Below are positions 2,149-51,167 of a stretch of 64,000 bases of DNA, one piece after another. A program made the position numbers and the translations under genes. Source of the DNA: Trichopria drosophilae (taxonomy: Eukaryota; Arthropoda; Insecta; Hymenoptera; Diapriidae); contig CM059582.1 in the NCBI GenBank assembly GCA_030407085.1, positions 200,616,001 to 200,680,000 on the forward strand. The letters run 5' to 3'. The notes under the pieces were generated by a model. The model searched no databases. It saw nothing but the letters and a program-made list of their open reading frames with translations, and had not been told where the DNA came from. How positions within the stretch are numbered: the first letter of the stretch is position 1; each line of letters starts with the position of its first letter.

Positions 2149-5100
2149 TACACCAAATGTATGGATTAAACGGAACATCGACCGGGATGCCAGTGGGTAT
2201 AACAAACCTGAAAATGGGTCCATTATTGGGCGGCGTCACGGGGGCAACAACCCTTCCACGGCCGGGAAACTGGCTGCACCCTGCGGGCCTCAGGCACGGG
2301 CACAGCGCGGCCCGGGTCCGCCTCTACTGCCAGGCAAAGTAAGAAGCCACGGCTCTGACAGGTTAGTTCAATTTTTTATTTTATAAAATCTGTTACTTCT
2401 TAAAAGACCAAATGTACAAAGATTTTGATATAAGGGTAGTTCTACGAAGGAAAAATATGAAGCTAACTTCAGGAAGACATTTTGCATGTGTTTAAGTTTA
2501 GACAAGTGTGTTAAAGGCATTCTAAAGTGATCCGCCGGCAAGGTACGAAATTTCACTAAAACACTTAAATTAGAGATGACTGAATAACATTTTCAAAATT
2601 CGGGCTCTGTAAAGAAAATTCTCATTACTATAAACGGTTTCCTAGAAAATACCAAAGGCATCCATTTAGAACTGACTAAGAATTTTCGGAAATAAATAAA
2701 AATCACTTATTTCCGAAAACTTTTGGTCAGTTTTTTACTAATTCCTTTGGCATTTTCTAGAAAACCGTCTGTAGAAATTAGAATTGCCTTTACAGAGCCC
2801 GAATTTCGAAAAATTGATTCAGTCATTTTTCATTTACAATTTTTTGTGAAAATTCTTATCTTATCGGCCAAGCACTTTAGAACCCCTTAAGCCAAAGTTA
2901 ATAACACTGTCTAAGCTGCGGCCAGACAAAAAGTTAATATTTATAAATTTTAGAGCCATATGTGTCATTTCACGACAATTCAGTCAGTTTTGAAATCGAT
3001 CGAATTGATTGTTCACCTTGATATGTACTTTTACATAGATATAAAGAACATTTTGTTACGATTTGTTTACACACATTTTTCTACGTTTAAAGTAATAAAT
3101 TTAAGATTTTTTGCTTATGGAACATTTTTATATTTTTTTTTGTTTATTAAATTCACAAACTACTGAAAATAACGAACAATTTGCGGGGTCGTATAAGTTG
3201 GCTAGTAGTTTCATTAATTTTGTACAGAATTTTATATTTTTTTTACAATTAAGATTTTTGCAAAAATCTGAAGGTTTTAGATTATCGAATTCACAATTCA
3301 CTATGTTCCTCTTTTTTGTGTGTTTTCGATGTTTATTAGTAATTCAAACCATATATTAATATAAAGAAATTGTTTTTTTTTTCATTCTAGTAAAGATGTA
3401 CTTGTTTATATTCAAATAAAGGAAACTTCTTTCTTAGTGTGTAAAAATTTCTTTTAAAAATCCCATTATTATAAATTAAATATTCGTTCACATATCCAAA
3501 GTTATTATACAATTTGATATTGTATTACACAATATAATATTTCGTAATTACTTTCAATTTTTGAATGAATATTTCATTAATATTTCAATTGGAAAATGTC
3601 AAATTTAACGATTCGATTAAACAACAATTTATTAATAAAACGTTCTCAAATTAAATCCATCGAGAAATTTCCTCCGGTTCATATCGATTGTTACGATTCA
3701 ATTTCCATTACAGACACGTTGGTTCAATATTATTCTCATTCTTGTCTTCATTTCATTCCTTGGTAGAATCGATTCGGTTATAAGAATACGTTATAACTAA
3801 TAACTATTTTAAGTGATTGGTTTTTACTACATGTTTAAAAGAAATTTTGGACGATTTAAATATTCCTCTCGAATTTGTAAGAAAAAGATTAAAAAATATT
3901 AGGTTTTTCTACGGCGTTTAGTTTCCGTTACATGATTCATAAATTTTAAAAATACAGAAACATCAAAAATAGTGTATGTGCTCTAAAAATAGATTCTGAT
4001 CTGTTTAATAAAAAATGTCTTTTAATGCACTGAAAAAAATTATTCATAAGTATATTTATTTCGATATACCCAAGTACATAATATACTGACTTGAATCTGT
4101 TTTTCTTAAATGAAATAATATTAACTAAAAAGAATAATATCATTTGTAAAATTAAAAACGTAGTTCAATTTTGTGTTTGGCTACTTTTTAAATAATGATT
4201 TACTTAAATATAATCAAACAAATCTTAATCTTGCTTTTAATTGAAAATATAGCAAATATTTTCAAAAATTGGTGTACTTCTTATTACCTTAGAAGTGATT
4301 GTAAAACAAGTATTAAATATCGAAATAAACACATTTTTTAATGATAAATAATCTTTATATTGTACATTTTAATACAAAATTCTTCTTTAAGTTTTATGTG
4401 TTTCATGTCTGTATTAATAAATTATTATTTTATCATTGCAGCGATATATCATCGGGTCAGAAGGATGAGTGGTTTGTGTAGGTGAGTGTATTCCCTTAAA
4501 ATATTATATCTAATGTTTAAAAAGCAACGTGTACGTTTTAAGGAAAAGGTGGTTGAAACAAGGAAATTACTTATTCAAATGAGAGCTCACGTTTGGGATT
4601 TTGCTAAGTAGGCAAAAGCTTAGAGTAAAGATTTCATACTTTCCTACTCTAGACTGCAATATTCAACAACCAGCTGCATTAGTCGTCTGACACGACATTT
4701 TCGATATAAGCGCGGCATGCACAATGAGGTTTATAAATTCAGACATTGTGTAATCTCTATAATATAGAAAATATAAGTATTTTCCAAATATTTAATGACA
4801 AATTTTACTTTGCAAAAAGGCTTTAGTACACAGAAAAATTTAGTGCAGGAAAAAAGAATAGATGATTTATCAATCTGAAAAATAGCTAATATAACGAACT
4901 AGATTTGTTAAATTTTTAACTATAAAAAATAGTCAGTTATAAATATAGGTTCATATATTTTTAGGGTGGTTGTGTACTCCAACTAAAAAAAAATACTAAG
5001 TTCAGTTATTTCCGTTATTGAACAAACGATTTTTATATATCTTAACTATTTTTTTAACAGATTGAACAACTATATTGTGTAATAACTACACTGTGACTAA

Positions 5101-8100
5101 CATATCCTGTTTGATATCGGGAAATATGATAGGGAATTCAGACATAACATATTATATAGCATAGAATTTAATGCTACCGATCTGTCAATTCTAAATTTCG
5201 GTAATTAAATACAATCACGTGGCAATGACCATTAAGGGGTCAATAATGGCATGTTTCATTTTGTCGAGAACAGATATCAACATAGAAGTAAATGTTAAAG
5301 ACATTTTGGCCCTCTCGGGCGCAAAATTCGATTTTACATCATCCAAAATTATGCAGCTAACAATTCCCCACCTAACCCAAGTAGATGAATAGGGACAGAT
5401 CTCACGGAGTTCCCGCCGCCGCCACCAGGCGTCGCCACAGTCGCGGCGCTGTCGCAGCATGCGAGGTGGTAGATTCGTGAACTAATTCGCAGACTGATTC
5501 GTGGACTAATTCGTGGTTTGAGTCGCGGACTGACTCGCGGGCTGATTCGCGGATTGATTCGCATTTTTGATTTACTGTTTAGTACGCGGGCTTATAATTC
5601 AAGACTCGCGGCGCTGTCGCAGCATGCGAGGTGGTAGATTCGTGAACTAATTCGTGGTTTGAGTCTCGGAATGACTCGCGGGCCGATTCGCGGATTGATT
5701 CACATTTTTGATTTGCTGTTTAGTACACGGTTTCAAGACTCTCACATTGGAAAATCTGACCGTCGCTAATGAGGTCATTTAGATGACGCAAGACTTCGTG
5801 GACGGTCCCATTAAGTTTTCGAAGATTAATGCTGTAGCGTTATGCATATATCTTTCGATCTTTTAAATGTGCCCTGTTGGGGAAATCTCTCTTTCAATAT
5901 GTCGTTACCGACCTAATTCGGATGTTACATATCTTTTTTTTTTTTGATGAATTGAAAGCGTAGATTTCCATTAGTCTAAATACCAGCTTGAAGCGCAATC
6001 TCGTATATCGACGACCTACTTTTTAAATCTCACACAAATTTTAAAAACCTACAATCAGGGCGTTGACCTCTCCCTTGTCATGATGTAAGTTCGAATTCAC
6101 CTTTCAGAGTTTTCTCTCGTCGGGGAAATCTATCCATATACCAGCTTGAAGCGTAATCTCGTATATCGACGACCTTTGCCATGTGTCGAAAATCAAATTT
6201 CAAAAGTCGCCTTCATTAAAGGTCAGATATTGCTACATTATAGTCGCTTATGGAAATACATCGTATTCGGTAGGAACCGTATTGAGAGTGAAAGTAAAAT
6301 GACCTTTTCCTCGTGCGTACACCGTTACCGACCTAATTCGGATGTTACATATCTTTTTTGATGAATTGACAGCGTAGATTTCCATTAGTCTGAATACCAG
6401 TTTGAAGGTGTCTAGCTCAATCTCGTATATCGACGACCTACTTTTTAAATCTCACACAAATTTTAAAAACCTACAATCAGGGCGTTGACCTCTCCCTTAC
6501 CATGTTGTAAGTTTGAATTCACCTTTCAGAGTTTTCTCTCGTCGGGGGAAATCTATCCATCAATATGACAGTCGTCTTGACAAGCCGTTAGTGTATCTCA
6601 ATGATCTCCAATAGTGACGAAACCGCTGAGCCCCTTCACACAAAACCGCTAAGACCATTTTAAAATTAATTTAGAAAAGCCTCTAAGCAAGTCTCAACGC
6701 GTTCAAAAGACCTGGTGTCGACCCCCTGATGCGCGGAAACCTTTTCCTCGTGCGTTCTACTATCATCTCTCTCGCTCTCGCATACTCTTATTTAGATCCA
6801 TTAACATTAGCAGTATACCATTTTCACGGTCGTCGATTATCCATCGATCACTTATTCACCGTACATTTGTTTTCCTGAAACTTTCGAAAATGTATACGGG
6901 TCCAGACACGTTTAAAAGGTCATTGCACAATTTCTTCAAAACATTATCTATTTACCAAATTTCGGCAATCCGTGACGTAAGAGAAAGGAAGCAGTCTAAT
7001 TCAAATATTCCAATGTCATAATTTCTATGATCTCTCTAGCTCTCACATACTCTTTCTTATATCCATTAACATTAGCAGTATACCGTTTTCACGGTTGTCG
7101 ATTATGCGTCGATCACTTATTCACCGTACATTTGTTTTCTCGAAACTCTCGAAATTGTATACAGGTCCAGACATCGTTTCAAAGGAATGTCGCGTTCCTG
7201 TGTCTATGTTTGACAGTACGTAAGCACCTCTATTTCAAATATTGTATTTCTACATCAATATGGTAGATGTCTAAAAGATTTTTGAGGCCTTGAACAGGGT
7301 TTACAGCACTCTTGAAGAAGACGCTGCTGAGGATCAATTTTCCAACTTCATTCGAGAATCCATCAAAAAGATTGAGAAAATCAATTAATTCTTAAGGACC
7401 AATCCTCACATTCCAAATGGGGTGAAGTTATCATTGGAGACACGTATTCATTGCATCACGGTACAGAGGGTTACAGCTGCTCACAGATTAATTAGCGTAT
7501 CTCAATGATCTCCAATAGAGACAAAACCGTCGAGTCCCTTCACCCAAGACCATTTTGAAATTAACGTAGAAAAGCCGCTAAGCAAGTCTCAACGCGTTCA
7601 AAAGACCTGGCGCCGACCCCCTAATATTGTTATAAAAATGTCCAGCCGTTAGATGGTCATTGCAAACGGCCTCTTTCTAATGCGTGATCTTAAGAAATTA
7701 GTTCATAAATATTGAAAAGTACTGGCTCTTACACATTAGTATTGTCATGTGAGGAATGTCGAAAAAAAAAAATGCAAAAGCAATTCATTAAAGGTCAGCT
7801 ATTGCTACATCATATTCGCTTCTCGATGCCTATGTGGAAATACAGCGTAGGCTGGGAACCGTATTTTGAATGTGAACATAAAATTCTAATAATGACCTTT
7901 TCCTCCTGCGTGCTACTACCATCTCTCTTGCTCTCTAGTACCCGTTGTTAGATTATACCGTTATCACGGTCATCGAAATCGCCGATTGCCAACCGATCAT
8001 TTTCACCATATATTTTCCATGTATACAGGTTCAGACGCGTTTAAAGTCATTGCGCAATTTCATCAAAAGGTATACCAAGTAACACATTTTCTCTTTCCAA

Positions 8101-11100
8101 AATTTTTAGACAACCTCCACCATAATAGAAAGGAGATGATCTCAGTTCTGTATTTTATCTAGGAATAACATGGCGGGCCACCTGTAGACCAACTCACCCC
8201 TTTGTTAACAAAAGTAGCATAAATAAATAAATAAATAATTTATAATAATAATATTTAAATAGTAATAAATTTCACATAATCCGAATAGCGTGTATTAAAA
8301 TGTATAATATAGAAATGATGGAAGAAGCTAGCAGTAATTAGAAAGAGAGGATGACACGCTTATTCCCTATGCATTTATCTATTCACGATATTTACGTGTT
8401 TTCATGACGTTCGAGCCATAGCTATACGAGTTTGGACACGTGGGTAATGTAATTAATCAGGTTCCTGACCGTTTTTTAATATGTGTACAATTTACGACAT
8501 CTTAAACATCGCCATACAAGTTTCGACCTGTTAATTACCCGTAGACTTTACTATACGATAACAATGAATCTGACTTCTCACAAGTGACGAACACATACGA
8601 GTATCGACTTGCTTCTAATATAATTAATTAATCTTCATTTAATATTTCCCACTTTTAAAATTTCTGAGAATAAGAAGATCGAAATGACGACGTAAAAATC
8701 TAAGAGAAGCGTGTAAAATTCAACAGTTTCTTTCTATCTTTACGCACAGTTTTGTGTCTTTTAAGTAAAAAGTTAAAGGAAATGATAATGCTGCCATCTT
8801 TTGGTATGTTTAAAGAGATTGAAGAATCTGCGTGTTGCAGAATGAAATATGTGGGTGCATCTAAAATGCATAGATTCATCGTAGGCTGTCATCATACACT
8901 TGCTGATATGAGTGGCTATGGAGCGATTACAACTGAATATGAAGTTCTTGAAAATTGAATCTAGTTGACAATTAACCTTATTATCACCATACAAAAGAAT
9001 ATGAAAGTGAAATTGTTAAATATTACCGCGCATCTACTGCAAAGCGAAAGCAATCTCGCTATTTTTAAAATACCTATACTGCCATTACTAGACATCCCTC
9101 TGAAATTAACACTTTGCATAGTCTTTAATCATAGGCGGTTGTCTATCTGCGGTATCATCACTCGTTTCAAAACGTTTATTGACGACATTCACGTAAATCT
9201 GGATGCATTTGCATTGTGAGTGGTAAGCATGACCATACTTCTTCAATTTCAAGTTCTGCAAACGTTGACATGAAATCTATAGGTAGACTCGATGTCTTTT
9301 GTTTCCATTAATGCAAGACGCTTCACTTCATAGTAAATTCTCATTGACCTTCGAAGAGATGCAGGCTAGTCTTGAAGATTTTACAGTATACAATTTTAAA
9401 GCATTTTAACATTTTCTTTAGCACACTTTCCGTTAAATGTATGATTTTCGCAATTTATTGAAAATCGACGTTGTTGTTGTCCTATGAGTTTCGGTAGAGA
9501 TGGACAGGCTAATATGTCTATATCGACAATATTGTCAGCATCTAAAATTTCCTGCAACCTATGTCTTTTATTTGTCTGCGCCTTTTATGTATATCTTGTG
9601 AGCACATGTAACGATGTCTTCCAACGTTTCGTTGATTCCATCAAAGGGTATATCGCCCGATTCCAATCGTAGACCATGATAATTGTGCATTAACCAATTG
9701 TTTTATGTTCAAAACGTACTTTACTACATTACTGTCGGAAATATCCATAATGTACATTTCCTTCGATATAAACTGATTACCAGATCCGGGGAATCCTTGC
9801 ACGTCGACAATATTCTACATTTCTAGTATCTAATACTGATTTGCTTGTCCCCTTCATTAATTGACGCATCATTCTCTCTCACACACACTCTTTGCCCCTT
9901 CCACATATGGCGTGGTACCTCTAACTTATGGGTATACGTCGTACCTTTCTCTCTCTAGATCGTAGTATCTCTTCGTAAAATCCTATGAATCGGAAATCAA
10001 ATCAGAGTGTAACAAAAACGTCGATTCTTCAGCGGGCCAACACTTGAGATTTTCGATAGTTTGTGAGTTACGATACTCAGATGATGAAGAAGTTAAACGT
10101 AATATTAAATCGTTTCAAGTACTAGCACCAGTATGATGGTCACCGCACTTTCACAATTGAATAAATCTTTTCTACGATATTCGATCTAATTGAAATGTGC
10201 ATAGACGTATGAATACAAGTTTCGATTGGTTTATAATACAATTGAGCGTGCCAAAGATCTCTAAATTTTAAATAAAAAATGATCAGTCATTAACTTGACA
10301 TCCTTTAAACAATTAATTTTTGTATGTATATTAAATAGCGATACACTGCAGTCTTAAATCAAATAATTAAAATCATTACATCTTAAAGTCAGTCCATGCA
10401 TAAATCTTACATGGTCTAAGTCATCTTATCTACACTACATCTTTCTTTCTGTAAATGCAAAACAAAACGAAAGACAACAAAGTATTTATCATTATGATAA
10501 TAACAAATTCTTTCACATTAGAACCGCGTCTAATAGCCCACATAAGGTCGCCTTATTCGTAGTGAATTTAACTTTCGAACTGTCATCTTTAATTGTCGAT
10601 CATTCTCTCTCTCTCTCATTAGCTACCGATTTGTTGCATCTATACGAATACTCTTACATCAAATCGAGTCGTATGCACATTCTTGTGTTGTAACATTCAC
10701 ACGACTATGGAATGAAATTCATTCTTAAAACCCAACAAGTACAAGCGTAAATGTATTTTAATACTAACGAATGGTATACCTCTTGATTCGAAATTGTATG
10801 TAGCGTAACCGACATGACTATTTAATTCCGTTTACAATAATGATTTGGAGATTCACACCGCACGAAACGTTGTTATATTTGACAGATTTTTGCTACTTCC
10901 ACATTGTAATCTTAATTAGTTAACTAAGTTATTCACGTATCAATACTATTGTTATATGTAGGTATTTTGTTAAATATATTGCCATAAGGAGAATGTCCTC
11001 CTATCCATCACACCTAGTGTAATACCAAAAGATACAAGTCATTATATCAATAAATAATTTTCATAGTAATAAATTAACCTTTAAAAACTTCTCATGTTTT

Positions 11101-14100
11101 CACATCATGCACTAAAATTTCAGATTATTATTATTATTATTATTAATAATATTGAATCGTTTATAGAACTGATGTTTTCATACATAATCACTTAAAAAGA
11201 CTGCTGTTGTATATGAAATATAAGACTAAACAACAATTCAACATGAAGACATGCATAGATTAATTCTACTTAAAACATTAGTCATTTTGAAAGGAAAAGT
11301 GAAAAATTCTCAATGACCTATCTGTAAAGCTTCTATCTTACTTCTATCTTACTTCATGTTTCTTTTCGACAGTCCAAACACATCGGTACATAAACACACT
11401 TTCAATAATTATTGAATAATTTCTTATATAAGGGAGTAAATATTCAACGATTTTTTCGTAAATAATGAAACAATTTAATATATACGATCATTATACAATT
11501 TTACTAAAACAAGCTTAATTGCGGTGTTTTGGAAATGTTGATGACAAAGTATGAATATGCAATTAAATGAATCATTTAACACACGTATCTCTATCACTAC
11601 GTTCAATTATATAATTTTTTAATACTATAACACGTACATATTTACAATATTTGCAGACTGTACGTCAGTCTTTTCATTTTCACGTTTAGACTAAAATGTG
11701 CGTCAAAACTGACTCTTGCTCGTCATTAATTATAGGCATCTAGTACATCGGAGCTTTGAAACACCTTTACAATATGTTGTATATGTTCTTAAATCTGAAT
11801 GCATTCACGTTACTGATGACAATAATGATTCTTTAGTTTAATCTTGACCAAAGGTGCAAACGCAACATATTGAGATGAGTACTATTGCCAGTGTCTGAAA
11901 TTTCTTACCCACACCGATGAAGGAAATGTCGTATATTATAGGCAAAAGCATTCACAGTTATTAATATGATTCTTTATAAATCATAAGTATATACTGTCGA
12001 CTAGATTCATAATAAACATATTGTTTAATGTAGATCGGTAAGTATCTAATTCCTTATCTTACATTTAATTCCTCACAATATTCAATATGTACCCTTCAAA
12101 GCGTCGTGTTTTATTTTTGATTATTGTATTTTGTAATATATCTGCTCGCACTCTCTATATTGAATTCATATTTTAAAGATAGATTGTAGCCACTCCAGAT
12201 ATTAACGAACACCTTACTAAGAACTAATACCTACACTAATATTCTACCTATACCAAAAACATCTAGCAAATAATCGAGATAATATTTTCACTTCAAATTT
12301 ATTATTATACTTGAAATATTTCTCCGAGTCTAAACTTCTCTTACAAGTTTACTGTGTTCTGCATCTCACTTATCTTATATTGGAAACGTTAGTTAACTAA
12401 TATTTTATGCGTGAAATTTGTATATTTTCCAATCCATATGTTTGAACACATTTATTCTCTAAAGATTACTCTAAGTGTTTTCTTTCGACTCTGAGAGTAC
12501 AGCAATCTACCGTCTTATTTCATACTGTGCACACTTAAACGTGTAGAATATACGAATAATATTTATTTACCCATAATTAATAATAATTTTATATACATTA
12601 TTACTTTCCCAGTATTACATTATACTCTCACTGATATTCTTCTTCTAACATAATACATCTCAATCGTAGTATTCACTTTCAAAATTTGTAATTATTTTGA
12701 ATTTTCCATTAATATCTCAGTAGCTTTCTTATATTATAAGTTTATTTCGTATCGTCTCTGCTAACATTCCTCACACTATTAATATTCCCTAACTTCATCT
12801 ATATAGTTTCAATATTTCCATAGCACATACCTTTTGACTATGGCGTAATCGTGTATTTCATATTTTAAAGATAAAAATTGCAGCTACTCCAGATATTAAC
12901 GAGCACCTTACTAAAAATTAAGACTGACAATCAAAGGACATAATTTCCGTTATTTCGGCCGTCGAAGATTTGGTTCTTTTATTTGTTTACGACATTGCGT
13001 GAGTTGGTCAGTTTCTGTGTAATACATACATCATTTATTTGACACTTACATTATTGCTCTCTCACACACAAAAGGTATCATAAATTTCTGCACGTTTGCT
13101 GACACGATTTTGAAATTATACTTAAATATTACGATTTTTGTCGGTTGCTCAATTGATGATCCCTCTCCCCCCCCTTCCCCCCCCCCCCCCCCTTTCCTCC
13201 CTCAATCATCAATTGAGCAACCGACAAAAATCGTAATATTTAAGTATAATTTCAAAATCGTGTCAGCAAACGTGCAGAAATTTATGATACCTTTTGTGTG
13301 TGAGAGAGCAATAATGTAAGTGTCAAATAAATGATGTATGTATTACACAGAAACTGACCAACTCACGCAATGTCGTAAACAAATAAAAGAACCAAATCTT
13401 CGACGGCCGAAATAACGGAAATTATGTCCTTTGATTGTCAGTCTTAATTTTTAGTAAGGTGCTCGTTAATATCTGGAGTAGCTGCAATTTTTATCTTTAA
13501 AATATGAAATACACGATTACGCCATAGTCAAAAGGTATGTGCTATGGAAATATTGAAACTATATAGATGAAGTTAGGGAATATTAATAGTGTGAGGAATG
13601 TTAGCAGAGACGATAAAAATTGCAGCTACTCCAGATATTAACGAGCACCTTACTAAAAATTAAGACTGACAATCAAAGGACATAATTTCCGTTATTTCGG
13701 CCGTCGAAGATTTGGTTCTTTTATTTGTTTACGACATTGCGTGAGTTGGTCAGTTTCTGTGTAATACATACATCATTTATTTGACACTTACATTATTGCT
13801 CTCTCACACACAAAAGGTATCATAAATTTCTGCACGTTTGCTGACACGATTTTGAAATTATACTTAAATATTACGATTTTTGTCGGTTGCTCAATTGATG
13901 ATCCCTCTCCCCCCCCTTCCCCCCCCCCCCTTTCCTCCCTCAATCATCATTTGAGCAACCGACAAAAATCGTAATATTTAAGTATAATTTCAAAATCGTG
14001 TCAGCAAACGTGCAGAAATTTATGATACCTTTTGTGTGTGAGAGAGCAATAATGTAAGTGTCAAATAAATGATGTATGTATTACACAGAAACTGACCAAC

Positions 14101-17100
14101 TCACGCAATGTCGTAAACAAATAAAAGAACCAAATCTTCGACGGCCGAAATAACGGAAATTATGTCCTTTGATTGTCAGTCTTAATTTTTAGTAAGGTGC
14201 TCGTTAATATCTGGAGTAGCTGCAATTTTTATCTTTAAAATATGAAATACACGATTACGCCATAGTCAAAAGGTATGTGCTATGGAAATATTGAAACTAT
14301 ATAGATGAAGTTAGGGAATATTAATAGTGTGAGGAATGTTAGCAGAGACGATAAAAATTGCAGCTACTCCAGATATTAACGAGCACCTTACTAAAAATTA
14401 AGACTGACAATCAAAGGACATAATTTCCGTTATTTCGGCCGTCGAAGATTTGGTTCTTTTATTTGTTTACGACATTGCGTGAGTTGGTCAGTTTCTGTGT
14501 AATACATACATCATTTATTTGACACTTACATTATTGCTCTCTCACACACAAAAGGTATCATAAATTTCTGCACGTTTGCTGACACGATTTTGAAATTATA
14601 CTTAAATATTACGATTTTTGTCGGTTGCTCAATTGATGATCCCTCTCCCCCCCCTTCCCCCCCCCCCCTTTCCTCCCTCAATCATCAATTGAGCAACCGA
14701 CAAAAATCGTAATATTTAAGTATAATTTCAAAATCGTGTCAGCAAACGTGCAGAAATTTATGATACCTTTTGTGTGTGAGAGAGCAATAATGTAAGTGTC
14801 AAATAAATGATGTATGTATTACACAGAAACTGACCAACTCACGCAATGTCGTAAACAAATAAAAGAAACCAAATCTTCGACAGCCGAAATAAAGGAAATT
14901 ATGTCCTTCAATTTTCAGTATTAATTATTAGTAAGTTTCTCGTTAATATCTGGAGTAGCTGCAATATTTATCGTCTCTGCTAACATTCCTCACACTATTA
15001 ATATTCCCTAACTTCATCTATATAGTTTCAATATTTCCGTAGCACATACCTTTTGACTATGGCGTAATCGTGTATTTCATATTTTAAAGATAAAAATTGA
15101 AGCTACTCCAGATATTAACGAGCACCTTACTAAAAATTAAGACTGACAATCAAAGGACATAATTTCCGTTATTTCGGCCGTCGAAGATTTGGTTCTTTTA
15201 TTTGTTTACGACATTGCGTGAGTTGGTCAGTTTCTGTGTAATACATACATCATTTATTTGACACTTACATTACTGCTCTCTCACACACAAAAGGTATCAT
15301 AAATTTCTGCACGTTTGCTGACACGATTTTGAAATTATACTTAAATATTACGATTTTTGTCGGTTGCTCAATTGATGATTGAGGGAGGAAAGGGGGGGGG
15401 GGGAAGGGGGGGGAGAGGGATCATCAATTGAGCAACCGACAAAAATCGTAATATTTAAGTATAATTTCAAAATCGTGTCAGCAAACGTGCAGAAATTTAT
15501 GATACCTTTTGTGTGTGAGAGAGCAATAATGTAAGTGTCAAATAAATGATGTATGTATTACACAGAAACTGACCAACTCACGCAATGTCGTAAACAAATA
15601 AAAGAACCAAATCTTCGACGGCCGAAATAACGGAAATTATGTCCTTTGATTGTCAGTCTTAATTTTTAGTAAGGTGCTCGTTAATATCTGGAGTAGCTGC
15701 AATTTTTATCGTCTCTGCTAACATTCCTCACACTATTAATATTCCCTAACTTCATCTATATAGTTTCAATATTTCCATAGCACATACCTTTTGACTATGG
15801 CGTAATCGTGTATTTCATATTTTAAAGATAAAAATTGCAGCTACTCCAGATATTAACGAGCACCTTACTAAAAATTAAGACTGACAATCAAAGGACATAA
15901 TTTCCGTTATTTCGGCCGTCGAAGATTTGGTTCTTTTATTTGTTTACGACATTGCGTGAGTTGGTCAGTTTCTGTGTAATACATACATCATTTATTTGAC
16001 ACTTACATTATTGCTCTCTCACACACAAAAGGTATCATAAATTTCTGCACGTTTGCTGACACGATTTTGAAATTATACTTAAATATTACGATTTTTGTCG
16101 GTTGCTCAATTGATGATTGAGGGAGGAAAGGGGGGGGGGGGGGGGAAGGGGGGGGAGAGGGATCATCAATTGAGCAACCGACAAAAATCGTAATATTTAA
16201 GTATAATTTCAAAATCGTGTCAGCAAACGTGCAGAAATTTATGATACCTTTTGTGTGTGAGAGAGCAATAATGTAAGTGTCAAATAAATGATGTATGTAT
16301 TACACAGAAACTGACCAACTCACGCAATGTCGTAAACAAATAAAAGAACCAAATCTTCGACGGCCGAAATAACGGAAATTATGTCCTTTGATTGTCAGTC
16401 TTAATTTTTAGTAAGGTGCTCGTTAATATCTGGAGTAGCTGCAATTTTTATCTTTAAAATATGAAATACACGATTACGCCATAGTCAAAAGGTATGTGCT
16501 ATGGAAATATTGAAACTATATAGATGAAGTTAGGGAATATTAATAGTGTGAGGAATGTTAGCAGAGACGATACGAAATAAACTTATAATATAAGAAAGCT
16601 ACTGAGATATTAATGGAAAATTCAAAATAATTACAAATTTTGAAAGTGAATACTACGATTGAGATGTATTATGTTAGAAGAAGAATATCAGTGAGAGTAT
16701 AATGTAATACTGGGAAAGTAATAATGTATATAAAATTATTATTAATTATGGGTAAATAAATATTATTCGTATATTCTACACGTTTAAGTGTGCACAGTAT
16801 GAAATAAGACGGTAGATTGCTGTACTCTCAGAGTCGAAAGAAAACACTTAGAGTAATCTTTAGAGAATAAATGTGTTCAAACATATGGATTGGAAAATAT
16901 ACAAATTTCACGCATAAAATATTAGTTAACTAACGTTTCCAATATAAGATAAGTGAGATGCAGAACACAGTAAACTTGTAAGAGAAGTTTAGACTCGGAG
17001 AAATATTTCAAGTATAATAATAAATTTGAAGTGAAAATATTATCTCGATTATTTGCTAGATGTTTTTGGTATAGGTAGAATATTAGTGTAGGTATTAGTT

Positions 17101-20100
17101 CTTAGTAAGGTGTTCGTTAATATCTGGAGTGGCTACAATCTATCTTTAAAATATGAATTCAATATAGAGAGTGCGAGCAGATATATTACAAAATACAATA
17201 ATCAAAAATAAAACACGACGCTTTGAAGGGTACATATTGAATATTGTGAGGAATTAAATGTAAGATAAGGAATTAGATACTTACCGATCTACATTAAACA
17301 ATATGTTTATTATGAATCTAGTCGACAGTATATACTTATGATTTATAAAGAATCATATTAATAACTGTGAATGCTTTTGCCTATAATATACGACATTTCC
17401 TTCATCGGTGTGGGTAAGAAATTTCAGACACTGGCAATAGTACTCATCTCAATATGTTGCGTTTGCACCTTTGGTCAAGATTAAACTAAAGAATCATTAT
17501 TGTCATCAGTAACGTGAATGCATTCAGATTTAAGAACATATACAACATATTGTAAAGGTGTTTCAAAGCTCCGATGTACTAGATGCCTATAATTAATGAC
17601 GAGCAAGAGTCAGTTTTGACGCACATTTTAGTCTAAACGTGAAAATGAAAAGACTGACGTACAGTCTGCAAATATTGTAAATATGTACGTGTTATAGTAT
17701 TAAAAAATTATATAATTGAACGTAGTGATAGAGATACGTGTGTTAAATGATTCATTTAATTGCATATTCATACTTTGTCATCAACATTTCCAAAACACCG
17801 CAATTAAGCTTGTTTTAGTAAAATTGTATAATGATCGTATATATTAAATTGTTTCATTATTTACGAAAAAATCGTTGAATATTTACTCCCTTATATAAGA
17901 AATTATTCAATAATTATTGAAAGTGTGTTTATGTACCGATGTGTTTGGACTGTCGAAAAGAAACATGAAGTAAGATAGAAGTAAGATAGAAGCTTTACAG
18001 ATAGGTCATTGAGAATTTTTCACTTTTCCTTTCAAAATGACTAATGTTTTAAGTAGAATTAATCTATGCATGTCTTCATGTTGAATTGTTGTTTAGTCTT
18101 ATATTTCATATACAACAGCAGTCTTTTTAAGTGATTATGTATGAAAACATCAGTTCTATAAACGATTCAATATTATTAATAATAATAATAATAATCTGAA
18201 ATTTTAGTGCATGATGTGAAAACATGAGAAGTTTTTAAAGGTTAATTTATTACTATGAAAATTATTTATTGATATAATGACTTGTATCTTTTGGTATTAC
18301 ACTAGGTGTGATGGATAGGAGGACATTCTCCTTATGGCAATATATTTAACAAAATACCTACATATAACAATAGTATTGATACGTGAATAACTTAGTTAAC
18401 TAATTAAGATTACAATGTGGGAGTAGCAAAAATCTGTCAAATATAACAACGTTTCGTGCGGTGTGAATCTCCAAATCATTATTGTAAACGGAATTAAATA
18501 GTCATGTCGGTTACGCTACATACAATTTCGAATCAAGAGGTATACCATTCGTTAGTATTAAAATACATTTACGCTTGTACTTGTTGGGTTTTAAGAATGA
18601 ATTTCATTCCATAGTCGTGTGAATGTTACAACACAAGAATGTGCATACGACTCGATTTGATGTAAGAGTATTCGTATAGATGCAACAAATCGGTAGCTAA
18701 TGAGAGAGAGAGAGAATGATCGACAATTAAAGATGACAGTTCGAAAGTTAAATTCACTACGAATAAGGCGACCTTATGTGGGCTATTAGACGCGGTTCTA
18801 ATGTGAAAGAATTTGTTATTATCATAATGATAAATACTTTGTTGTCTTTCGTTTTGTTTTGCATTTACAGAAAGAAAGATGTAGTGTAGATAAGATGACT
18901 TAGACCATGTAAGATTTATGCATGGACTGACTTTAAGATGTAATGATTTTAATTATTTGATTTAAGACTGCAGTGTATCGCTATTTAATATACATACAAA
19001 AATTAATTGTTTAAAGGATGTCAAGTTAATGACTGATCATTTTTTATTTAAAATTTAGAGATCTTTGGCACGCTCAATTGTATTATAAACCAATCGAAAC
19101 TTGTATTCATACGTCTATGCACATTTCAATTAGATCGAATATCGTAGAAAAGATTTATTCAATTGTGAAAGTGCGGTGACCATCATACTGGTGCTAGTAC
19201 TTGAAACGATTTAATATTACGTTTAACTTCTTCATCATCTGAGTATCGTAACTCACAAACTATCGAAAATCTCAAGTGTTGGCCCGCTGAAGAATCGACG
19301 TTTTTGTTACACTCTGATTTGATTTCCGATTCATAGGATTTTACGAAGAGATACTACGATCTAGAGAGAGAAAGGTACGACGTATACCCATAAGTTAGAG
19401 GTACCACGCCATATGTGGAAGGGGCAAAGAGTGTGTGTGAGAGAGAATGATGCGTCAATTAATGAAGGGGACAAGCAAATCAGTATTAGATACTAGAAAT
19501 GTAGAATATTGTCGACGTGCAAGGATTCCCCGGATCTGGTAATCAGTTTATATCGAAGGAAATGTACATTATGGATATTTCCGACAGTAATGTAGTAAAG
19601 TACGTTTTGAACATAAAACAATTGGTTAATGCACAATTATCATGGTCTACGATTGGAATCGGGCGATATACCCTTTGATGGAATCAACGAAACGTTGGAA
19701 GACATCGTTACATGTGCTCACAAGATATACATAAAAGGCGCAGACAAATAAAAGACATAGGTTGCAGGAAATTTTAGATGCTGACAATATTGTCGATATA
19801 GACATATTAGCCTGTCCATCTCTACCGAAACTCATAGGACAACAACAACGTCGATTTTCAATAAATTGCGAAAATCATACATTTAACGGAAAGTGTGCTA
19901 AAGAAAATGTTAAAATGCTTTAAAATTGTATACTGTAAAATCTTCAAGACTAGCCTGCATCTCTTCGAAGGTCAATGAGAATTTACTATGAAGTGAAGCG
20001 TCTTGCATTAATGGAAACAAAAGACATCGAGTCTACCTATAGATTTCATGTCAACGTTTGCAGAACTTGAAATTGAAGAAGTATGGTCATGCTTACCACT

Positions 20101-23100
20101 CACAATGCAAATGCATCCAGATTTACGTGAATGTCGTCAATAAACGTTTTGAAACGAGTGATGATACCGCAGATAGACAACCGCCTATGATTAAAGACTA
20201 TGCAAAGTGTTAATTTCAGAGGGATGTCTAGTAATGGCAGTATAGGTATTTTAAAAATAGCGAGATTGCTTTCGCTTTGCAGTAGATGCGCGGTAATATT
20301 TAACAATTTCACTTTCATATTCTTTTGTATGGTGATAATAAGGTTAATTGTCAACTAGATTCAATTTTCAAGAACTTCATATTCAGTTGTAATCGCTCCA
20401 TAGCCACTCATATCAGCAAGTGTATGATGACAGCCTACGATGAATCTATGCATTTTAGATGCACCCACATATTTCATTCTGCAACACGCAGATTCTTCAA
20501 TCTCTTTAAACATACCAAAAGATGGCAGCATTATCATTTCCTTTAACTTTTTACTTAAAAGACACAAAACTGTGCGTAAAGATAGAAAGAAACTGTTGAA
20601 TTTTACACGCTTCTCTTAGATTTTTACGTCGTCATTTCGATCTTCTTATTCTCAGAAATTTTAAAAGTGGGAAATATTAAATGAAGATTAATTAATTATA
20701 TTAGAAGCAAGTCGATACTCGTATGTGTTCGTCACTTGTGAGAAGTCAGATTCATTGTTATCGTATAGTAAAGTCTACGGGTAATTAACAGGTCGAAACT
20801 TGTATGGCGATGTTTAAGATGTCGTAAATTGTACACATATTAAAAAACGGTCAGGAACCTGATTAATTACATTACCCACGTGTCCAAACTCGTATAGCTA
20901 TGGCTCGAACGTCATGAAAACACGTAAATATCGTGAATAGATAAATGCATAGGGAATAAGCGTGTCATCCTCTCTTTCTAATTACTGCTAGCTTCTTCCA
21001 TCATTTCTATATTATACATTTTAATACACGCTATTCGGATTATGTGAAATTTATTACTATTTAAATATTATTATTATAAATTATTTATTTATTTATTTAT
21101 GCTACTTTTGTTAACAAAGGGGTGAGTTGGTCTACAGGTGGCCCGCCATGTTATTCCTAGATAAAATACAGAACTGAGATCATCTCCTTTCTATTATGGT
21201 GGAGGTTGTCTAAAAATTTTGGAAAGAGAAAATGTGTTACTTGGTATACCTTTTGATGAAATTGCGCAATGACTTTAAACGCGTCTGAACCTGTATACAT
21301 GGAAAATATATGGTGAAAATGATCGGTTGGCAATCGGCGATTTCGATGACCGTGATAACGGTATAATCTAACAACGGGTACTAGAGAGCAAGAGAGATGG
21401 TAGTAGCACGCAGGAGGAAAAGGTCATTATTAGAATTTTATGTTCACATTCAAAATACGGTTCCCAGCCTACGCTGTATTTCCACATAGGCATCGAGAAG
21501 CGAATATGATGTAGCAATAGCTGACCTTTAATGAATTGCTTTTGCATTTTTTTTTTTCGACATTCCTCACATGACAATACTAATGTGTAAGAGCCAGTAC
21601 TTTTCAATATTTATGAACTAATTTCTTAAGATCACGCATTAGAAAGAGGCCGTTTGCAATGACCATCTAACGGCTGGACATTTTTATAACAATATTAGGG
21701 GGTCGGCGCCAGGTCTTTTGAACGCGTTGAGACTTGCTTAGCGGCTTTTCTACGTTAATTTCAAAATGGTCTTGGGTGAAGGGACTCGACGGTTTTGTCT
21801 CTATTGGAGATCATTGAGATACGCTAATTAATCTGTGAGCAGCTGTAACCCTCTGTACCGTGATGCAATGAATACGTGTCTCCAATGATAACTTCACCCC
21901 ATTTGGAATGTGAGGATTGGTCCTTAAGAATTAATTGATTTTCTCAATCTTTTTGATGGATTCTCGAATGAAGTTGGAAAATTGATCCTCAGCAGCGTCT
22001 TCTTCAAGAGTGCTGTAAACCCTGTTCAAGGCCTCAAAAATCTTTTAGACATCTACCATATTGATGTAGAAATACAATATTTGAAATAGAGGTGCTTACG
22101 TACTGTCAAACATAGACACAGGAACGCGACATTCCTTTGAAACGATGTCTGGACCTGTATACAATTTCGAGAGTTTCGAGAAAACAAATGTACGGTGAAT
22201 AAGTGATCGACGCATAATCGACAACCGTGAAAACGGTATACTGCTAATGTTAATGGATATAAGAAAGAGTATGTGAGAGCTAGAGAGATCATAGAAATTA
22301 TGACATTGGAATATTTGAATTAGACTGCTTCCTTTCTCTTACGTCACGGATTGCCGAAATTTGGTAAATAGATAATGTTTTGAAGAAATTGTGCAATGAC
22401 CTTTTAAACGTGTCTGGACCCGTATACATTTTCGAAAGTTTCAGGAAAACAAATGTACGGTGAATAAGTGATCGATGGATAATCGACGACCGTGAAAATG
22501 GTATACTGCTAATGTTAATGGATCTAAATAAGAGTATGCGAGAGCGAGAGAGATGATAGTAGAACGCACGAGGAAAAGGTTTCCGCGCATCAGGGGGTCG
22601 ACACCAGGTCTTTTGAACGCGTTGAGACTTGCTTAGAGGCTTTTCTAAATTAATTTTAAAATGGTCTTAGCGGTTTTGTGTGAAGGGGCTCAGCGGTTTC
22701 GTCACTATTGGAGATCATTGAGATACACTAACGGCTTGTCAAGACGACTGTCATATTGATGGATAGATTTCCCCCGACGAGAGAAAACTCTGAAAGGTGA
22801 ATTCAAACTTACAACATGGTAAGGGAGAGGTCAACGCCCTGATTGTAGGTTTTTAAAATTTGTGTGAGATTTAAAAAGTAGGTCGTCGATATACGAGATT
22901 GAGCTAGACACCTTCAAACTGGTATTCAGACTAATGGAAATCTACGCTGTCAATTCATCAAAAAAGATATGTAACATCCGAATTAGGTCGGTAACGGTGT
23001 ACGCACGAGGAAAAGGTCATTTTACTTTCACTCTCAATACGGTTCCTACCGAATACGATGTATTTCCATAAGCGACTATAATGTAGCAATATCTGACCTT

Positions 23101-25896
23101 TAATGAAGGCGACTTTTGAAATTTGATTTTCGACACATGGCAAAGGTCGTCGATATACGAGATTACGCTTCAAGCTGGTATATGGATAGATTTCCCCGAC
23201 GAGAGAAAACTCTGAAAGGTGAATTCGAACTTACATCATGACAAGGGAGAGGTCAACGCCCTGATTGTAGGTTTTTAAAATTTGTGTGAGATTTAAAAAG
23301 TAGGTCGTCGATATACGAGATTGCGCTTCAAGCTGGTATTTAGACTAATGGAAATCTACGCTTTCAATTCATCAAAAAAAAAAAAGATATGTAACATCCG
23401 AATTAGGTCGGTAACGACATATTGAAAGAGAGATTTCCCCAACAGGGCACATTTAAAAGATCGAAAGATATATGCATAACGCTACAGCATTAATCTTCGA
23501 AAACTTAATGGGACCGTCCACGAAGTCTTGCGTCATCTAAATGACCTCATTAGCGACGGTCAGATTTTCCAATGTGAGAGTCTTGAAACCGTGTACTAAA
23601 CAGCAAATCAAAAATGTGAATCAATCCGCGAATCGGCCCGCGAGTCATTCCGAGACTCAAACCACGAATTAGTTCACGAATCTACCACCTCGCATGCTGC
23701 GACAGCGCCGCGAGTCTTGAATTATAAGCCCGCGTACTAAACAGTAAATCAAAAATGCGAATCAATCCGCGAATCAGCCCGCGAGTCCGTCCGCGACTCA
23801 AACCACGAATTAGTCCACGAATCAGTCTGCGAATTAGTTCACGAATCTACCACCTCGCATGCTGCGACAGCGCCGCGACTGTGGCGACGCCTGGTGGCGG
23901 CGGCGGGAACTCCGTGAGATCTGTCCCTATTCATCTACTAACCCAATTTGAAATACGGGGTATGAATTCGAATTTTACATCCACTTGGGAGATAAATATT
24001 TTTAGTATTACGGGTGGTAAACTTTATTTTAATCCGTTTACGAAAAGTACTATTCAGAAACTTTGAAACTGATAGAACATGTCTAAAAATTCGAAGTTAG
24101 GTACATGTTTATGAATTACATGTAAAAAGTATAAAATTTGAGGTTAGGGTTACTATTCACTGTTTGAAGAAATTTATATCGAAGTAAATAATTGGTAAAG
24201 TAGCCATCGAATGAAACATTAGCTCATTAAGTTAAATAACTGCACATTATCCTACAATTTTAATTAAAATAAAAACGTAAATTTTCTCAAAAAACTGTTC
24301 CAGATATTAAACTATTTTTGTATTATAATTGGGATGGCTATTTGCAGGTCTTTGTGCAATATTAAATAATTTTCCACGTAAGATCTATCACAAAAATTCT
24401 ATCGCATTTGCTTTCGTTATTATGGTATACTTTGACAAAACTTTTGGATTTTTTCTTAATTTTTTAATTTTAGTATTAGGTCACATTCAATGTATGTGTG
24501 AAATTTTAATTAACTAAGTTATTAGTAAGCCACTTTATATAGTGTACATCCAAATGTCAGCTAAAGCGCGAAAAAACCATCGATAAATTCAGGATTTTTT
24601 TAATTTAAAATGATACACTTTCAGAAAAAATGTTACTAAATAAAATATTCAAAGAACATATGATAATTTTTAAAATAATAAAAGTGTTCTTTTCGAAAGA
24701 CTTTCAGAAAAAACATTATTGAACGACATTGAAATTTTACTAAATGTTTTGAAAACTTAAAAATTTTTAAAAATGTTGGAATTCTGACAAATTGACAAAG
24801 TATTTTAAAAATTCTGTATAAATATTAGCATATTCTTTGATCAATTCTAAGAACGTTTTGTTAGGTAACATTTTTTTTCGAAAATCTAGCAGTTTTATGT
24901 AAAGAATTCCTGAACTTTTCAACGGATTTTTTGTGTTTGAGCTGACATTCTGGATGTTTTCTCCTTTACTTTCAAAATACCTGTATACACGTTTTAATGT
25001 TTTTTTTTACTTCAAGTAAGAATTCCGAAATGATTTCAATGTGAAAAAACGAGACAAAACGAAATACATTTGAATAGTCCATGTTTTTTTGCAAAAAAAA
25101 AACATGTTTAGCATATGGTTGCATTTTTTTGGAATGTTAATAACATATTCTGAAAGTGCAGTTAATTTTACGTCAGATTAGCCTTCTTATAGATTTTGTA
25201 CATCCTGTTTCGATGCAATTGAAAACTGTAGTGAAAAAATGTCCATTTAGGAGTTTCCAATCTCATTTGAGTTTGGTTCAAATACTTATCATATGGCAAT
25301 ATACGCAAGGAATTTTATAATAACAAAATTTTGTTCCCCGATCTTTTCATATACATATATGTATACTTAACTTTTCGAAAATCGATTTTTCGAGTGTTTG
25401 ACCCAAAATTATCTGGAAACCTGTTTTTTGGTGGACAGATTTTGGTTTGTGATAATTTTCGATAAGAATAGGTAAAGTTGATTTCGTTGGAATTTAGACC
25501 CTCCGATGGGTCATTTGGGGTCAAAAAGTCTCGGAAAGCGATTTTCGAAATGTTAATGTTTTATATGCTGGAAACTTTATTTAGAGATATAAATTGTTTT
25601 GAGCTCATTTACGATAAGAATAGACGAAGTTGATTTTTAGAGAATATTGAACCGTTGTGGGAATAACATGGGGTCATTTAGGGTCACAAAATTTTCGAAA
25701 AATTAATGTTTTATACATTTATACATTACAATAACAAATCCATCAATTCTGTTTTTAGAGGCAGGCCTGGACCAAAGTCCGCAGGGTGAATCGGAGCGGT
25801 GGTGCCCTCACCGCGCCTCATTTGCTTTCGTCGCATCTCATCGACGGAACAGACGTCGTACTGTTGTCAAATTATCATCAACGAACAAAAACATAA
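2149..25896 (+). CDS. 3'-terminal coding exons of an unidentified host gene, with alternative ends
   Basis: I do not recognise the product. Exon 2149-2361 follows a good acceptor (TTTTTTAG) and is open in one frame that enters with the last base of a split codon. The encoded tail is hydrophilic and rich in Gly, Pro and Arg. Two donors exist: GTAAGA after 2338 and GTTAGT after 2361. Using 2361, the frame joins exon 4442-4481 (acceptor TTGCAG), adds about a dozen residues ending DEWFV, and stops at TAG 4479-4481, immediately before a GTGAGT donor. Using 2338, it joins 25759 (acceptor GTTTTTAG) in phase and stays open for 45 codons to TAA at 25894-25896. Both joins preserve phase, which supports real exons. 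The 18.5-kb palindrome lies in the intron between 4481 and 25759. Upstream exons are outside the window or not recognised. The short C terminus ending in Val could be a PDZ ligand, which is only an inference. Confidence 0.55.
2511..2890. mobile_element. Palindromic MITE with TTAA ends
   Basis: A foldback element of about 380 bp. The left half, from TTAAAGGCATTCTAAAGTG, reappears as reverse complement in the right half ending CACTTTAGAACCCCTTAA. Internal blocks such as TTCGGGCTCTGTAAAG and the CTAGAAAAT-CCAAAGG block also occur in mirror orientation. TTAA at both borders fits a piggyBac-type target duplication. There is no coding capacity. It lies in the intron after exon 2149-2361. A related copy lies at 31004-31376. 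Confidence 0.7.
2891..4441. other. AT-rich intronic sequence
   Basis: Between exons of the + strand gene. It is very AT-rich with long T and A runs. Small open frames on both strands (for example around 3.0-3.36 kb) are low-complexity and have no recognisable motif. Confidence 0.5.
4482..5373. other. Intronic AT-rich sequence ending in a dispersed repeat
   Basis: No gene seen. The last ~85 bp (about 5296-5379) are the left half of a dispersed repeat that was split by the palindromic insertion. Its right half resumes at 23940. Confidence 0.5.
5460..5720 (+). repeat. Subterminal minisatellite of the palindrome arm
   Basis: Two runs of degenerate 12-15-bp units built on GACTGATTCGCGG / GACTAATTCGTGG, separated by about 50 bp. 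Translated on the other strand they give Arg-Ile-Ser-Pro-Arg repeats, which explains the open frames here. The mirror copy is at about 23599-23859. Confidence 0.75.
7274..7387 (+). pseudogene. Short coding-like fragment in the left arm
   Basis: Between in-frame stops, about 36 codons of amphipathic, acidic and basic composition (blocks EEDAAEDQFSNF and RESIKKIEKIN) are free of stops and look protein-like, unlike the AT-rich noise around them. No family is recognised. The mirror copy is at about 21932-22045 on the - strand. It may be the C-terminal remnant of an element gene. Confidence 0.25.
9396..9811 (-). pseudogene. Relic of an element-encoded gene (left-arm copy)
   Basis: Mirror twin of 19508-19923. 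Read on the - strand it shows VDVQGF near the start, NYHG in the middle, a VTCAHKIYIKG segment, then CPSL and a C-x-x-H / CAKENV tail, spread over three frames. See the right-arm copy for detail. Small + strand open frames here are shadows. Confidence 0.5.
12749..16574. repeat. Central tandem array of five nested palindromic modules
   Basis: Five modules spaced about 740 bp, each a palindrome with arms of about 290-410 bp around a 36-44-nt homopyrimidine or homopurine loop. Loops are at about 13161-13200, 13903-13940 and 14641-14678 (C-rich on +) and 15381-15420 and 16118-16161 (G-rich on +). Arms meet the loop with TCAATTGATGAT / ATCATCAATTGA. The outer modules also contain a ~140-bp extension absent from the inner joins. 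The third loop is the centre of the 18.6-kb palindrome, so the array is itself mirror-symmetric. The right arm of module 3 (about 14870-14970) is more diverged than the others. The proline-rich open frames at 13110 and 16003 are just translations of the C-tract. Confidence 0.85.
14661..23939 (-). repeat. Right arm of the giant palindrome
   Basis: Reverse complement of the left arm. All left-arm features recur mirrored at 29319 minus their coordinate, for example the minisatellites at about 23599-23694 and 23744-23859. It ends at CATCTACT (23939), followed by the second copy of the AACCCA duplication. Confidence 0.85.
19508..19923 (+). pseudogene. Relic of an element-encoded gene with VDVQGF, NYHG and CPSL motifs (right-arm copy)
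   Basis: Three consecutive blocks in different frames form one degenerate protein of about 135 residues. Block 1 opens with VDVQGF (19511). Block 2 carries NYHG, then SGDIPFDGINETLEDI and KIYIKGADK. Block 3 carries ILACPSLPKL, an NCENH pair and CAKENV before a TAA at about 19921. Frame breaks lie near 19620 and 19750 and look like single-base indels. The motif order matches a family of uncharacterised arthropod proteins that, from memory, I associate with Maverick-like and other selfish elements; an RNase H or exonuclease-like fold is possible but unproven. Both arms carry the same breaks, so decay happened before the mirror duplication or was homogenised afterwards. Confidence 0.5.
23946..25758. 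other. Intronic sequence: split dispersed repeat, then AT-rich DNA with a tandem block
   Basis: The first ~90 bp (to about 24035) are the right half of the dispersed repeat split by the palindrome. The rest is AT-rich. A block of about 150 bp containing CGATAAGAATAG and GGGTCATTT is duplicated in tandem, with copies starting near 25461 and 25612. No coding signal. Confidence 0.5.
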
Positions 25897-46330: not shown

Positions 46331-46789
46331 TTTTTTGCAAATATAATTTTGCAAATATATATTAACATAAATTCTCTAATAAATTTTTAGAAATAAATCG
46401 AAGAGATATACTCCATTCAGAACCCATTAAGAAGTAAACTATTTTTAATTAATTCTTTTAGAAAGAATAGTCTATTGTGAACGTATTTAAACGAATGATA
46501 ACATTTATTCTTCTTTGCATTCCGTTATGACGTGTTTTGTTGCGAAGATAACGTCGAAATATTGGAAAAATGTCGAACAAACTAAGGTTGGATATTTCAA
46601 ACACATTCTACCAAATTGAAATAATTGTACATTTATTATTCTAAACATCATACCGGTAGCGACAAAGTCTCCATTGTAATATTAAAATGATTTTAAAAGT
46701 CAATTGTTTAATAATAAAAACAGATACGATACTTTCAGTAATAATTAATTATATAAAGTTAAAGAAGTTGCCGAGTACGCAATAACGAT

Positions 46790-46950
46790 TTTCGCCCTTC
46801 CAGGCGTAAAATCACATTTTACGCCCTCGAAAATTACACGGCTGAGATAGGAGTTCCCCACCTATACCAATTTACAATCCGGGGAATATATTTGAATTTT
46901 ACACTCGCTCGGGCGAAAAATATTGTTCGTATTACGGGCGTAATTCTTAT
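46790..46950 (+). repeat. Dispersed ~180-bp repeat, uninterrupted copy 2 (paralogous empty site)
   Basis: Contains GGCGTAAAAT...ATTTTACGCC, then TTCCCCACCT, ATACCA, AATTTACAATCCGGGG and ATTACGGGCGTAA. The giant palindrome's left flank ends TTCCCCACCT-AACCCA and its right flank begins AACCCA-AATTTG...CGGGG. This copy therefore shows the pre-insertion arrangement with one copy of the 6-bp target. Confidence 0.7.
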
Positions 46951-51108: not shown

Positions 51109-51167
51109 AATCGGCCAATCCTGACGCTTATTCGTCCCGAATAATTACGCACATGATGTCCAGGGCT

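What the first reader, a model, noticed from the sequence alone, without database searches (positions are those of the whole stretch)
5374..23945. 18.6-kb near-perfect palindrome with Polinton-type ends and target duplication
The sequence shows two 9.28-kb mirror arms, a 6-bp duplication AACCCA on both sides, and 5'-AG termini. Polintons/Mavericks are known for 6-bp duplications, long TIRs and 5'-AG ends, but they carry a unique coding interior. Here the TIRs extend to the centre and no element gene is intact. I infer that one end of an element was copied into a head-to-head dimer (for instance by fold-back self-priming during replication of a linear genome) and the dimer integrated as a unit. 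This would be a non-autonomous palindromic Polinton class that I do not know to be described. Very high arm identity implies youth or gene conversion.
Basis: partly seen in the sequence, partly recalled or inferred. Interest (0 to 1): 0.9.

Follow-up and report, generated by a model that had tools for sequence, protein, structure and literature searches.

The report
Palindromic non-autonomous Polinton transposon family
This 18.6-kb stretch of an insect chromosome is one copy of a multi-copy family of gene-less, mirror-image DNA built from the ends of virus-like jumping elements (Polintons) and inserted at many sites, apparently with the help of Polinton machinery.

Summary
The element is 5380-23939 (18,560 bp) between 6-bp duplications AACCCA; its arms (9,261 and 9,259 bp) are 99.8% identical around a 40-bp pyrimidine tract. 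A related repeat at 46788-46938 aligns gap-free across the joined flanks: an empty site. The arms show no gene signal. In the same 936-Mb genome the exact terminus occurs 98 times. I paired 72 of these into 36 elements; 27 of 36 have exact 6-bp duplications. 26 carry the window's arm on both sides, 8 are non-palindromic Polintons, 1 is a separate fold-back of a Polinton's polymerase-side end, 1 is a 1-kb TIR-only copy. Pfam finds capsid and integrase genes in the two Polintons scanned, ATPase and partial PolB in one. The arm shares their TIR and holds decayed Polinton gene pieces. Arms of one copy are sisters in 10 of 12 copies. Movement by Polinton proteins and fold-back origin are inferred.

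The parts
5374..5379 (+). left copy of the 6-bp target site duplication AACCCA
   Evidence: paralogous empty site
23940..23945 (+). right copy of AACCCA
5380..14640 (+). left arm, 9,261 bp
14641..14680 (+). central 40-bp pyrimidine (C/T) tract, axis of the palindrome
   Evidence: a C/T tract between X and X' also read in six other loci
14681..23939 (-). right arm, reverse complement of the left, 9,259 bp
5380..6736 (+). Polinton terminal inverted repeat (left): 5380-6137 and 6323-6736 match the TIRs of L025-L028 at 94-98%; in L035/L036 the outermost 210 bp match at only 78-83%
22583..23939 (-). Polinton terminal inverted repeat (right), by mirror
5472..5562 (+). 12-bp subterminal tandem repeats (7.6 copies), mirrored at 23757-23847
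7284..7490 (+). decayed piece similar to the ORF nearest the polymerase-side end (L026:5317-6894, minus strand), 46% aa by tblastx
9094..9841 (-). decayed piece similar to the ORF beside the capsid gene (L025:1566-2426, minus strand), about 70% nt over 9120-9841
12750..16572 (.). central array: P (120 bp) and X (291 bp) blocks in alternating orientation around five pyrimidine tracts; C2:79.88, C1:102.3, C43 and C176 show a single X-tract-X'
46788..46938 (+). related repeat that serves as the empty site

Best explanation
The element is a member of a non-autonomous, palindromic family derived from Polintons/Mavericks. SHOWN: it has the terminus, TIR and 6-bp duplication of coding Polintons in the same genome; its arm holds decayed pieces of Polinton genes; 26 of 36 paired elements carry this arm on both sides, 17 of the 26 with exact 6-bp duplications; in the window and the six other loci where both sides of the centre were read, the axis is the same kind of X-pyrimidine tract-X'. 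INFERRED: a Polinton-derived end was copied back on itself once at a pyrimidine tract, probably by template switching or self-priming while a linear genome was replicated by strand displacement; the resulting mirror molecule, having two good ends, was replicated and integrated in trans by Polinton proteins and amplified as a unit. The two arms were made identical at or near each insertion (like LTRs), or are kept so by arm-to-arm conversion. In the window copy the central unit has expanded to five tracts.
For: 98 exact termini, reversed-pattern control 0. 27 of 36 paired elements with exact 6-bp duplications: 17 of 26 arm-class, 8 of 8 Polintons, the fold-back and the 1-kb copy. Polinton genes between the same termini in L025/L026: DJR capsid 401 bits, rve 61.8 bits, A32-like ATPase 29.2 bits, PolB 30.3 bits. 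TIR shared and gene pieces in the arm. X-tract-X' centres. Arms are sisters in 10 of 12 copies; within-copy identity up to 99.99% against 92-99.8% between copies. Separate fold-back of the polymerase-side end with duplication TTAGAT. 6-bp duplications and AG-type ends are Maverick marks (PMC8097293, passages); IS3EU and GingerRoot also make 6-bp duplications but end TA..TA or TG..CA (PMC10045372, passages).
Against: Movement in trans was not observed. No PolB match listed (a cut list; 73 of 1,067 candidates scored) falls inside any of the 36 paired elements, the eight Polintons included; the only PolB trace in them is a partial match in one 153-aa ORF of L026, and L027/L028 was not scanned. 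So the helper may be another Polinton. The gene pieces in the arm are about 70% like the coding Polintons while the TIR is 94-98%, so the direct source was not found. The arm contains pieces of both ends. Nine of 26 arm-class copies lack an exact duplication: three have mirrored host flanks, four are unplaced contigs (four of four such), two are unexplained. Arm 4.5-7.4 kb matched nothing in the Polintons compared.
Confidence: 0.82

Rival explanations
1. Assembly artefact: a hairpin read or a collapsed inverted repeat made a false mirror image, or hid a coding interior.
For: 9-kb arms at 99.8% are hard to assemble; four of four unplaced contigs with paired termini lack a duplication; three chromosomal copies have mirrored host flanks; no reads could be examined.
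Against: The window's flanks are unmirrored and join into a known repeat at a 6-bp duplication; the arms differ at scattered positions; 17 arm-class copies with their own exact duplications lie on chromosomes C1-C6.
Confidence: 0.05
2. The palindrome arose inside the chromosome, by fold-back repair of an integrated Polinton or by slow elongation of TIRs through gene conversion, and not on a linear replicating genome; it then moved as a unit.
For: Three of 36 paired elements have mirrored host flanks (1,018 bp, 363 bp, and about 1.5 kb in tandem-repetitive DNA), as if inverted copying ran on into flanking DNA. Foldback structure evolving by TIR elongation is proposed in the literature (PMC4079207, passages).
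Against: A shared tract at the axis fits one founding event better than gradual elongation; C4:54.39 has a fold-back with a single-copy spacer and unmirrored flanks with a 6-bp duplication. Neither excludes a chromosomal origin.
Confidence: 0.1
3. A foldback element or MITE of another superfamily that only resembles Polintons.
For: Foldback elements have long TIRs with internal tandem repeats (Tetris, PMC4079207, passages).
Against: Tetris has 8-10 bp duplications; here the exact terminus and TIR belong to elements with Polinton genes and 6-bp duplications.
Confidence: 0.02

Closest known systems
Polinton/Maverick (adintovirus-like) elements
   Same: same 15-base terminus, TIR and 6-bp duplication as coding copies in this genome; AG-type ends as in vertebrate Mavericks, whose commonest motif is (AGT)2 (PMC8097293, passages)
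   Different: no gene; the mirror reaches the centre, whereas intact vertebrate Mavericks have TIRs of 46-1,447 bp
Foldback elements such as Tetris of Drosophila virilis (PMC4079207, passages)
   Same: no coding capacity, long TIRs with internal repeats, presumed to be moved by an autonomous relative
   Different: 8-10 bp duplications, TIRs up to 1,735 bp and a middle domain, no autonomous relative found; here 6 bp, arms of up to 9.3 kb and coding relatives in the same genome
Fold-back inverted duplications of chromosomes (PMC3907307, passages)
   Same: inverted arms around a single-copy spacer, as in C4:54387610-54396767 (spacer about 2 kb)
   Different: here the product is flanked by a target site duplication, and the window's kind is a repeated mobile family
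Defective genomes of protein-primed linear viruses (recalled; search gave no paper that I read on this)
   Same: terminal sequence kept, genes lost, inverted duplication of an end
   Different: no particle or replicating form was observed here

Membership tests
Polinton/Maverick | 6-bp target site duplication | tested here: met
   AACCCA, with paralogous empty site; 27 of 36 paired elements
Polinton/Maverick | termini beginning AG / AGT repeat | tested here: met
   AGTAGA..TCTACT; the commonest vertebrate motif AGTAGT matches at five of six bases
Polinton/Maverick | TIR shared with coding Polintons of the same genome | tested here: met
   arm 1-758 and 944-1357 at 94-98% in L025-L028
Polinton/Maverick | own PolB, integrase, capsid and ATPase genes | tested here: not met
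   81 ORF pieces of at least 35 aa from 5380-12870, both strands, best Pfam E-value 0.028; hence at most a non-autonomous derivative
Polinton/Maverick | replication and integration by Polinton proteins | not testable with these tools
   inferred from shared ends and duplications
Foldback (Mutator-type) | 8-10 bp target site duplication | tested here: not met
   6 bp in the window and in the family; 8-10 bp reported for Tetris
IS3EU / GingerRoot | 6-bp duplication with TA..TA or TG..CA termini | tested here: not met
   termini are AG..CT (definition from PMC10045372, passages)

The most novel reading that the evidence does not exclude
Polintons throw off palindromic genomes that live as parasites of the parent: each cycle passes through a self-complementary single strand, so that one arm templates the other and the arms stay identical; the length of the least altered copies near that of the parent (15.2-16.0 kb in seven of 26 arm-class copies, against 16.4-16.8 kb in five of eight Polintons) reflects a packaging or replication limit. 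They would be the insect counterpart of defective virus genomes, fixed in chromosomes as a transposon family.
Probability: 0.3. Interest if true: 0.92.

Novelty: new variant of a known kind. Interest (0 to 1): 0.84.

Why it matters
Animal Polintons are thought to replicate as linear, protein-primed genomes, but direct evidence of that form is scarce (recalled). A mobile family of mirror images of Polinton ends, plus a separate fold-back of the same kind of Polinton, is the footprint expected of template switching on such a genome. It also suggests that kilobase-scale palindromes with a 40-bp spacer can spread and persist in an animal genome. None of the papers listed in ten searches (open-licence papers only; listings capped, most papers not read) announced palindromic Polintons in its title or the abstract lines shown.

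Tried and rejected
Coding arms: no credible Pfam or PHROG family, no window above the threshold I used for three-base periodicity, ORF lengths as in resampled sequence (a longest ORF of 122 aa or more in 69 of 200), no homologue at E 0.001 for the longest ORF. Rfam: no match. Terminus and arm words in viral contigs and the terminus in genome contigs: 0 matches. Host: of 34 gag homologues the named ones are insects, apart from one record labelled as a rust fungus; the species is not determined. An age from two substitutions (about 23,000-47,000 generations for rates that I assumed) is not claimed, since arm conversion could reset it. A simple dimer of one end of the coding Polintons seen here was dropped, because the arm holds pieces of both ends. 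An earlier count said TA for the duplication at the 858-bp insert; on rereading it is TG.

Full report
WHAT IS THERE. The window lies in a 936-Mb assembly at C1:200616001-200680000; a gypsy gag in the window points to an insect. Between two copies of AACCCA sits an 18,560-bp element, 5380-23939, whose halves mirror each other: 9,261 and 9,259 bp at 99.78% around a 40-bp C/T tract. The outer 7.37 kb of the arms differ by two substitutions and a 3-bp indel. Near the centre a 291-bp block (X) recurs in alternating orientation around five C/T tracts of 44, 40, 40, 40 and 44 bp, with a 120-bp block P between units. One X copy, 14681-14972, is 96% like the others, its changes clustered in about 100 bp.

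REAL INSERTION. The flanks belong to a repeat with a relative at 46788-46938. Flanks joined with one AACCCA align to it with no gap at the junction, and the score falls if two or no copies of the duplication are kept. The flanks are not mirrored. This argues against a hairpin-read artefact at the outer boundaries; the centre was not checked on reads.

NO GENES. 81 ORF pieces of 35 aa or more from both strands of 5380-12870 gave no credible Pfam or PHROG match; no arm window passed the periodicity threshold, and ORF lengths are as in resampled sequence. The right arm was not scanned apart.

A FAMILY. The 15-base terminus occurs 98 times exactly, the reversed control 0 times. I paired 72 inward-facing hits by hand into 36 elements of 1-26 kb; 26 termini stayed unpaired and were not examined. 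Exact 6-bp duplications flank 27 of 36: the window, 8 of 14, 17 of 20 and 1 of 1. Classes rest on halves or near-halves of 14 elements, 600-bp pieces 2.0-2.6 kb inside each end of 18, centre pieces of 6, four of them also in the former set, arm hits on both sides, one whole 1-kb copy, and the window. 26 carry the window's arm on both sides. Of these, C2:105.68 and C2:115.58 gave no mirrored match in the pieces compared, which I read as asymmetric deletion, and C1:109.55 and C1:124.12 are heavily rearranged. 17 of the 26 have exact duplications. 8 are non-palindromic Polintons, 8 of 8 with duplications. C4:54.39 is a fold-back of the polymerase-side end. C3:31.91 is a 1-kb TIR-only copy.

POLINTON GENES. 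In L025/L026 (16,623 bp, duplication TGTCTG) Pfam finds a DJR capsid domain (401 bits), a PLA2-like domain (44.8 bits), an A32-like ATPase (29.2 bits), an rve integrase (61.8 bits) with a chromodomain below cut-off, and a partial PolB (30.3 bits); an adenovirus-protease match is below cut-off. The 25.9-kb L035/L036 has capsid (334.7 bits) and rve (61.7 bits) matches. L027/L028 was not scanned by Pfam; its ORF layout is similar. The capsid gene gives 579 candidates genome-wide; the best 40 were scored, all at 99-100%, and five of these lie inside five of the eight Polintons. So this Polinton kind is abundant and recent, and most listed capsid copies lie outside my paired set.

RESULT AGAINST. 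PolB gives 175 matches, the list being cut and 73 of 1,067 candidates scored. By eye none of those listed falls inside any of the 36 elements, the eight Polintons included. Their own PolB is thus seen only as one partial match, and the helper for replication may be another Polinton.

LINK. The window arm matches the Polinton TIR over 1-758 and 944-1357 (94-98% in L025-L028, less at the outermost 210 bp in L035/L036), a piece of the ORF nearest the polymerase-side end at arm 1905-2111, and a piece of the ORF beside the capsid gene at arm 3741-4462 (about 70%), both decayed with stops. A TIR-like piece lies between them (2113-2246). The arm therefore mixes pieces of both ends, all pointing the same way from the terminus. 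Arm 4.5-7.4 kb matched nothing in the Polintons compared, but for one 20-base hit.

ONE FOUNDER, MANY MOVES. Both sides of the centre were read in the window and in six other loci, on C1, C2 and contig C43: each time X, a C/T tract of 40-85 bp, X'. Seven of 26 arm-class copies are 15.2-16.0 kb long; the others are shorter or longer, the window copy being an expanded form. In a tree of 24 arms from 12 copies the arms of one copy are sisters in 10 of 12 (for the window copy as read on an unrooted tree, support 0.86); within-copy identity reaches 99.99%, while left arms of different copies are 92-99.8% alike. The exceptions are two unplaced contigs, C224 and C406. Within-copy identity is low in C1:109.55 (83%), C1:124.12 (92%) and C1:99.68 (96.5%). 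Arms were therefore mostly equal at insertion, or are equalised later.

SEPARATE FOLD-BACK. In C4:54387610-54396767 the left half follows the polymerase-side end to about 4051 and then returns from 6064; the right half continues back to the end, so that about 2 kb is single-copy between inverted arms. Each arm has a deletion of its own. It is 91-97% like L026 and L028 over most of its length (about 85% at the outermost 186 bp) and has the duplication TTAGAT. The 119-bp filler at the turn seems to hold an inverted scrap of nearby sequence, read by eye. This is the structure expected of fold-back or template switching (PMC3907307, passages). It shares only the TIR with the window's arm.

FURTHER RESULTS AGAINST. 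Nine of 26 arm-class copies lack an exact duplication. Three of them (C1:69.35, C1:109.55, C4:52.02) have mirrored host flanks for 1,018 bp, 363 bp and about 1.5 kb of tandem-repetitive DNA: inverted copying ran on into the chromosome, or the assembly is wrong there. Four are unplaced contigs that may be assembly products. C1:99.68 and C6:75.77 are unexplained. The direct parent of the arm was not found.

MECHANISM. Shown: shared ends, duplications, gene remnants, repeated mirror structure. Inferred: origin by fold-back on a linear replicating genome, mobilisation by Polinton proteins, arm equalisation per cycle. The G-rich strand of the tract could stall a polymerase (recalled; not tested).

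NOVELTY. The foldback element Tetris differs in duplication length, and intact vertebrate Mavericks have TIRs of at most 1,447 bp. I rate the finding a new variant of a known kind.

Noticed in passing
50068-50925: An 858-bp near-palindromic insert splits one LTR of a gypsy-like retrotransposon (LTR parts 50012-50067 and 50926-51110; other LTR 56619-56857), with a 2-bp duplication that I read as TG.
   Followed up: partly
46788-46938 and about 44701-44900: Relatives of the dispersed repeat into which the palindrome inserted.
   Followed up: partly
L084/L085, L086/L087, L088/L089: Three family copies have host flanks that are mirrored as well, so the inverted copy extends beyond the element; no duplication is seen.
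   Followed up: partly
L127 and window 7490: The polymerase-side similarity ends near position 1672 from the terminus both in the window's arm and at a deletion in the fold-back C4:54.39; a breakpoint hot spot or coincidence.
   Followed up: partly
L051: A 1,018-bp TIR-only relative with a 6-bp duplication and 251-bp inverted ends, a miniature Polinton derivative.
   Followed up: partly
14868-14966: Cluster of changes in one X block beside the axis, while the nine other X copies in the window differ by at most two bases; possibly a conversion tract.
   Followed up: no
G000, one search list: Many PolB matches with long open frames outside the paired elements: this genome holds other Polintons whose ends were not examined.
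   Followed up: no
36221-38572: A 783-aa open frame on the minus strand rich in Ser/Thr, over 27-bp repeats.
   Followed up: no
58151-60735: Pieces of a reprolysin-like metallopeptidase gene on the minus strand; Pfam matches below cut-off.
   Followed up: no
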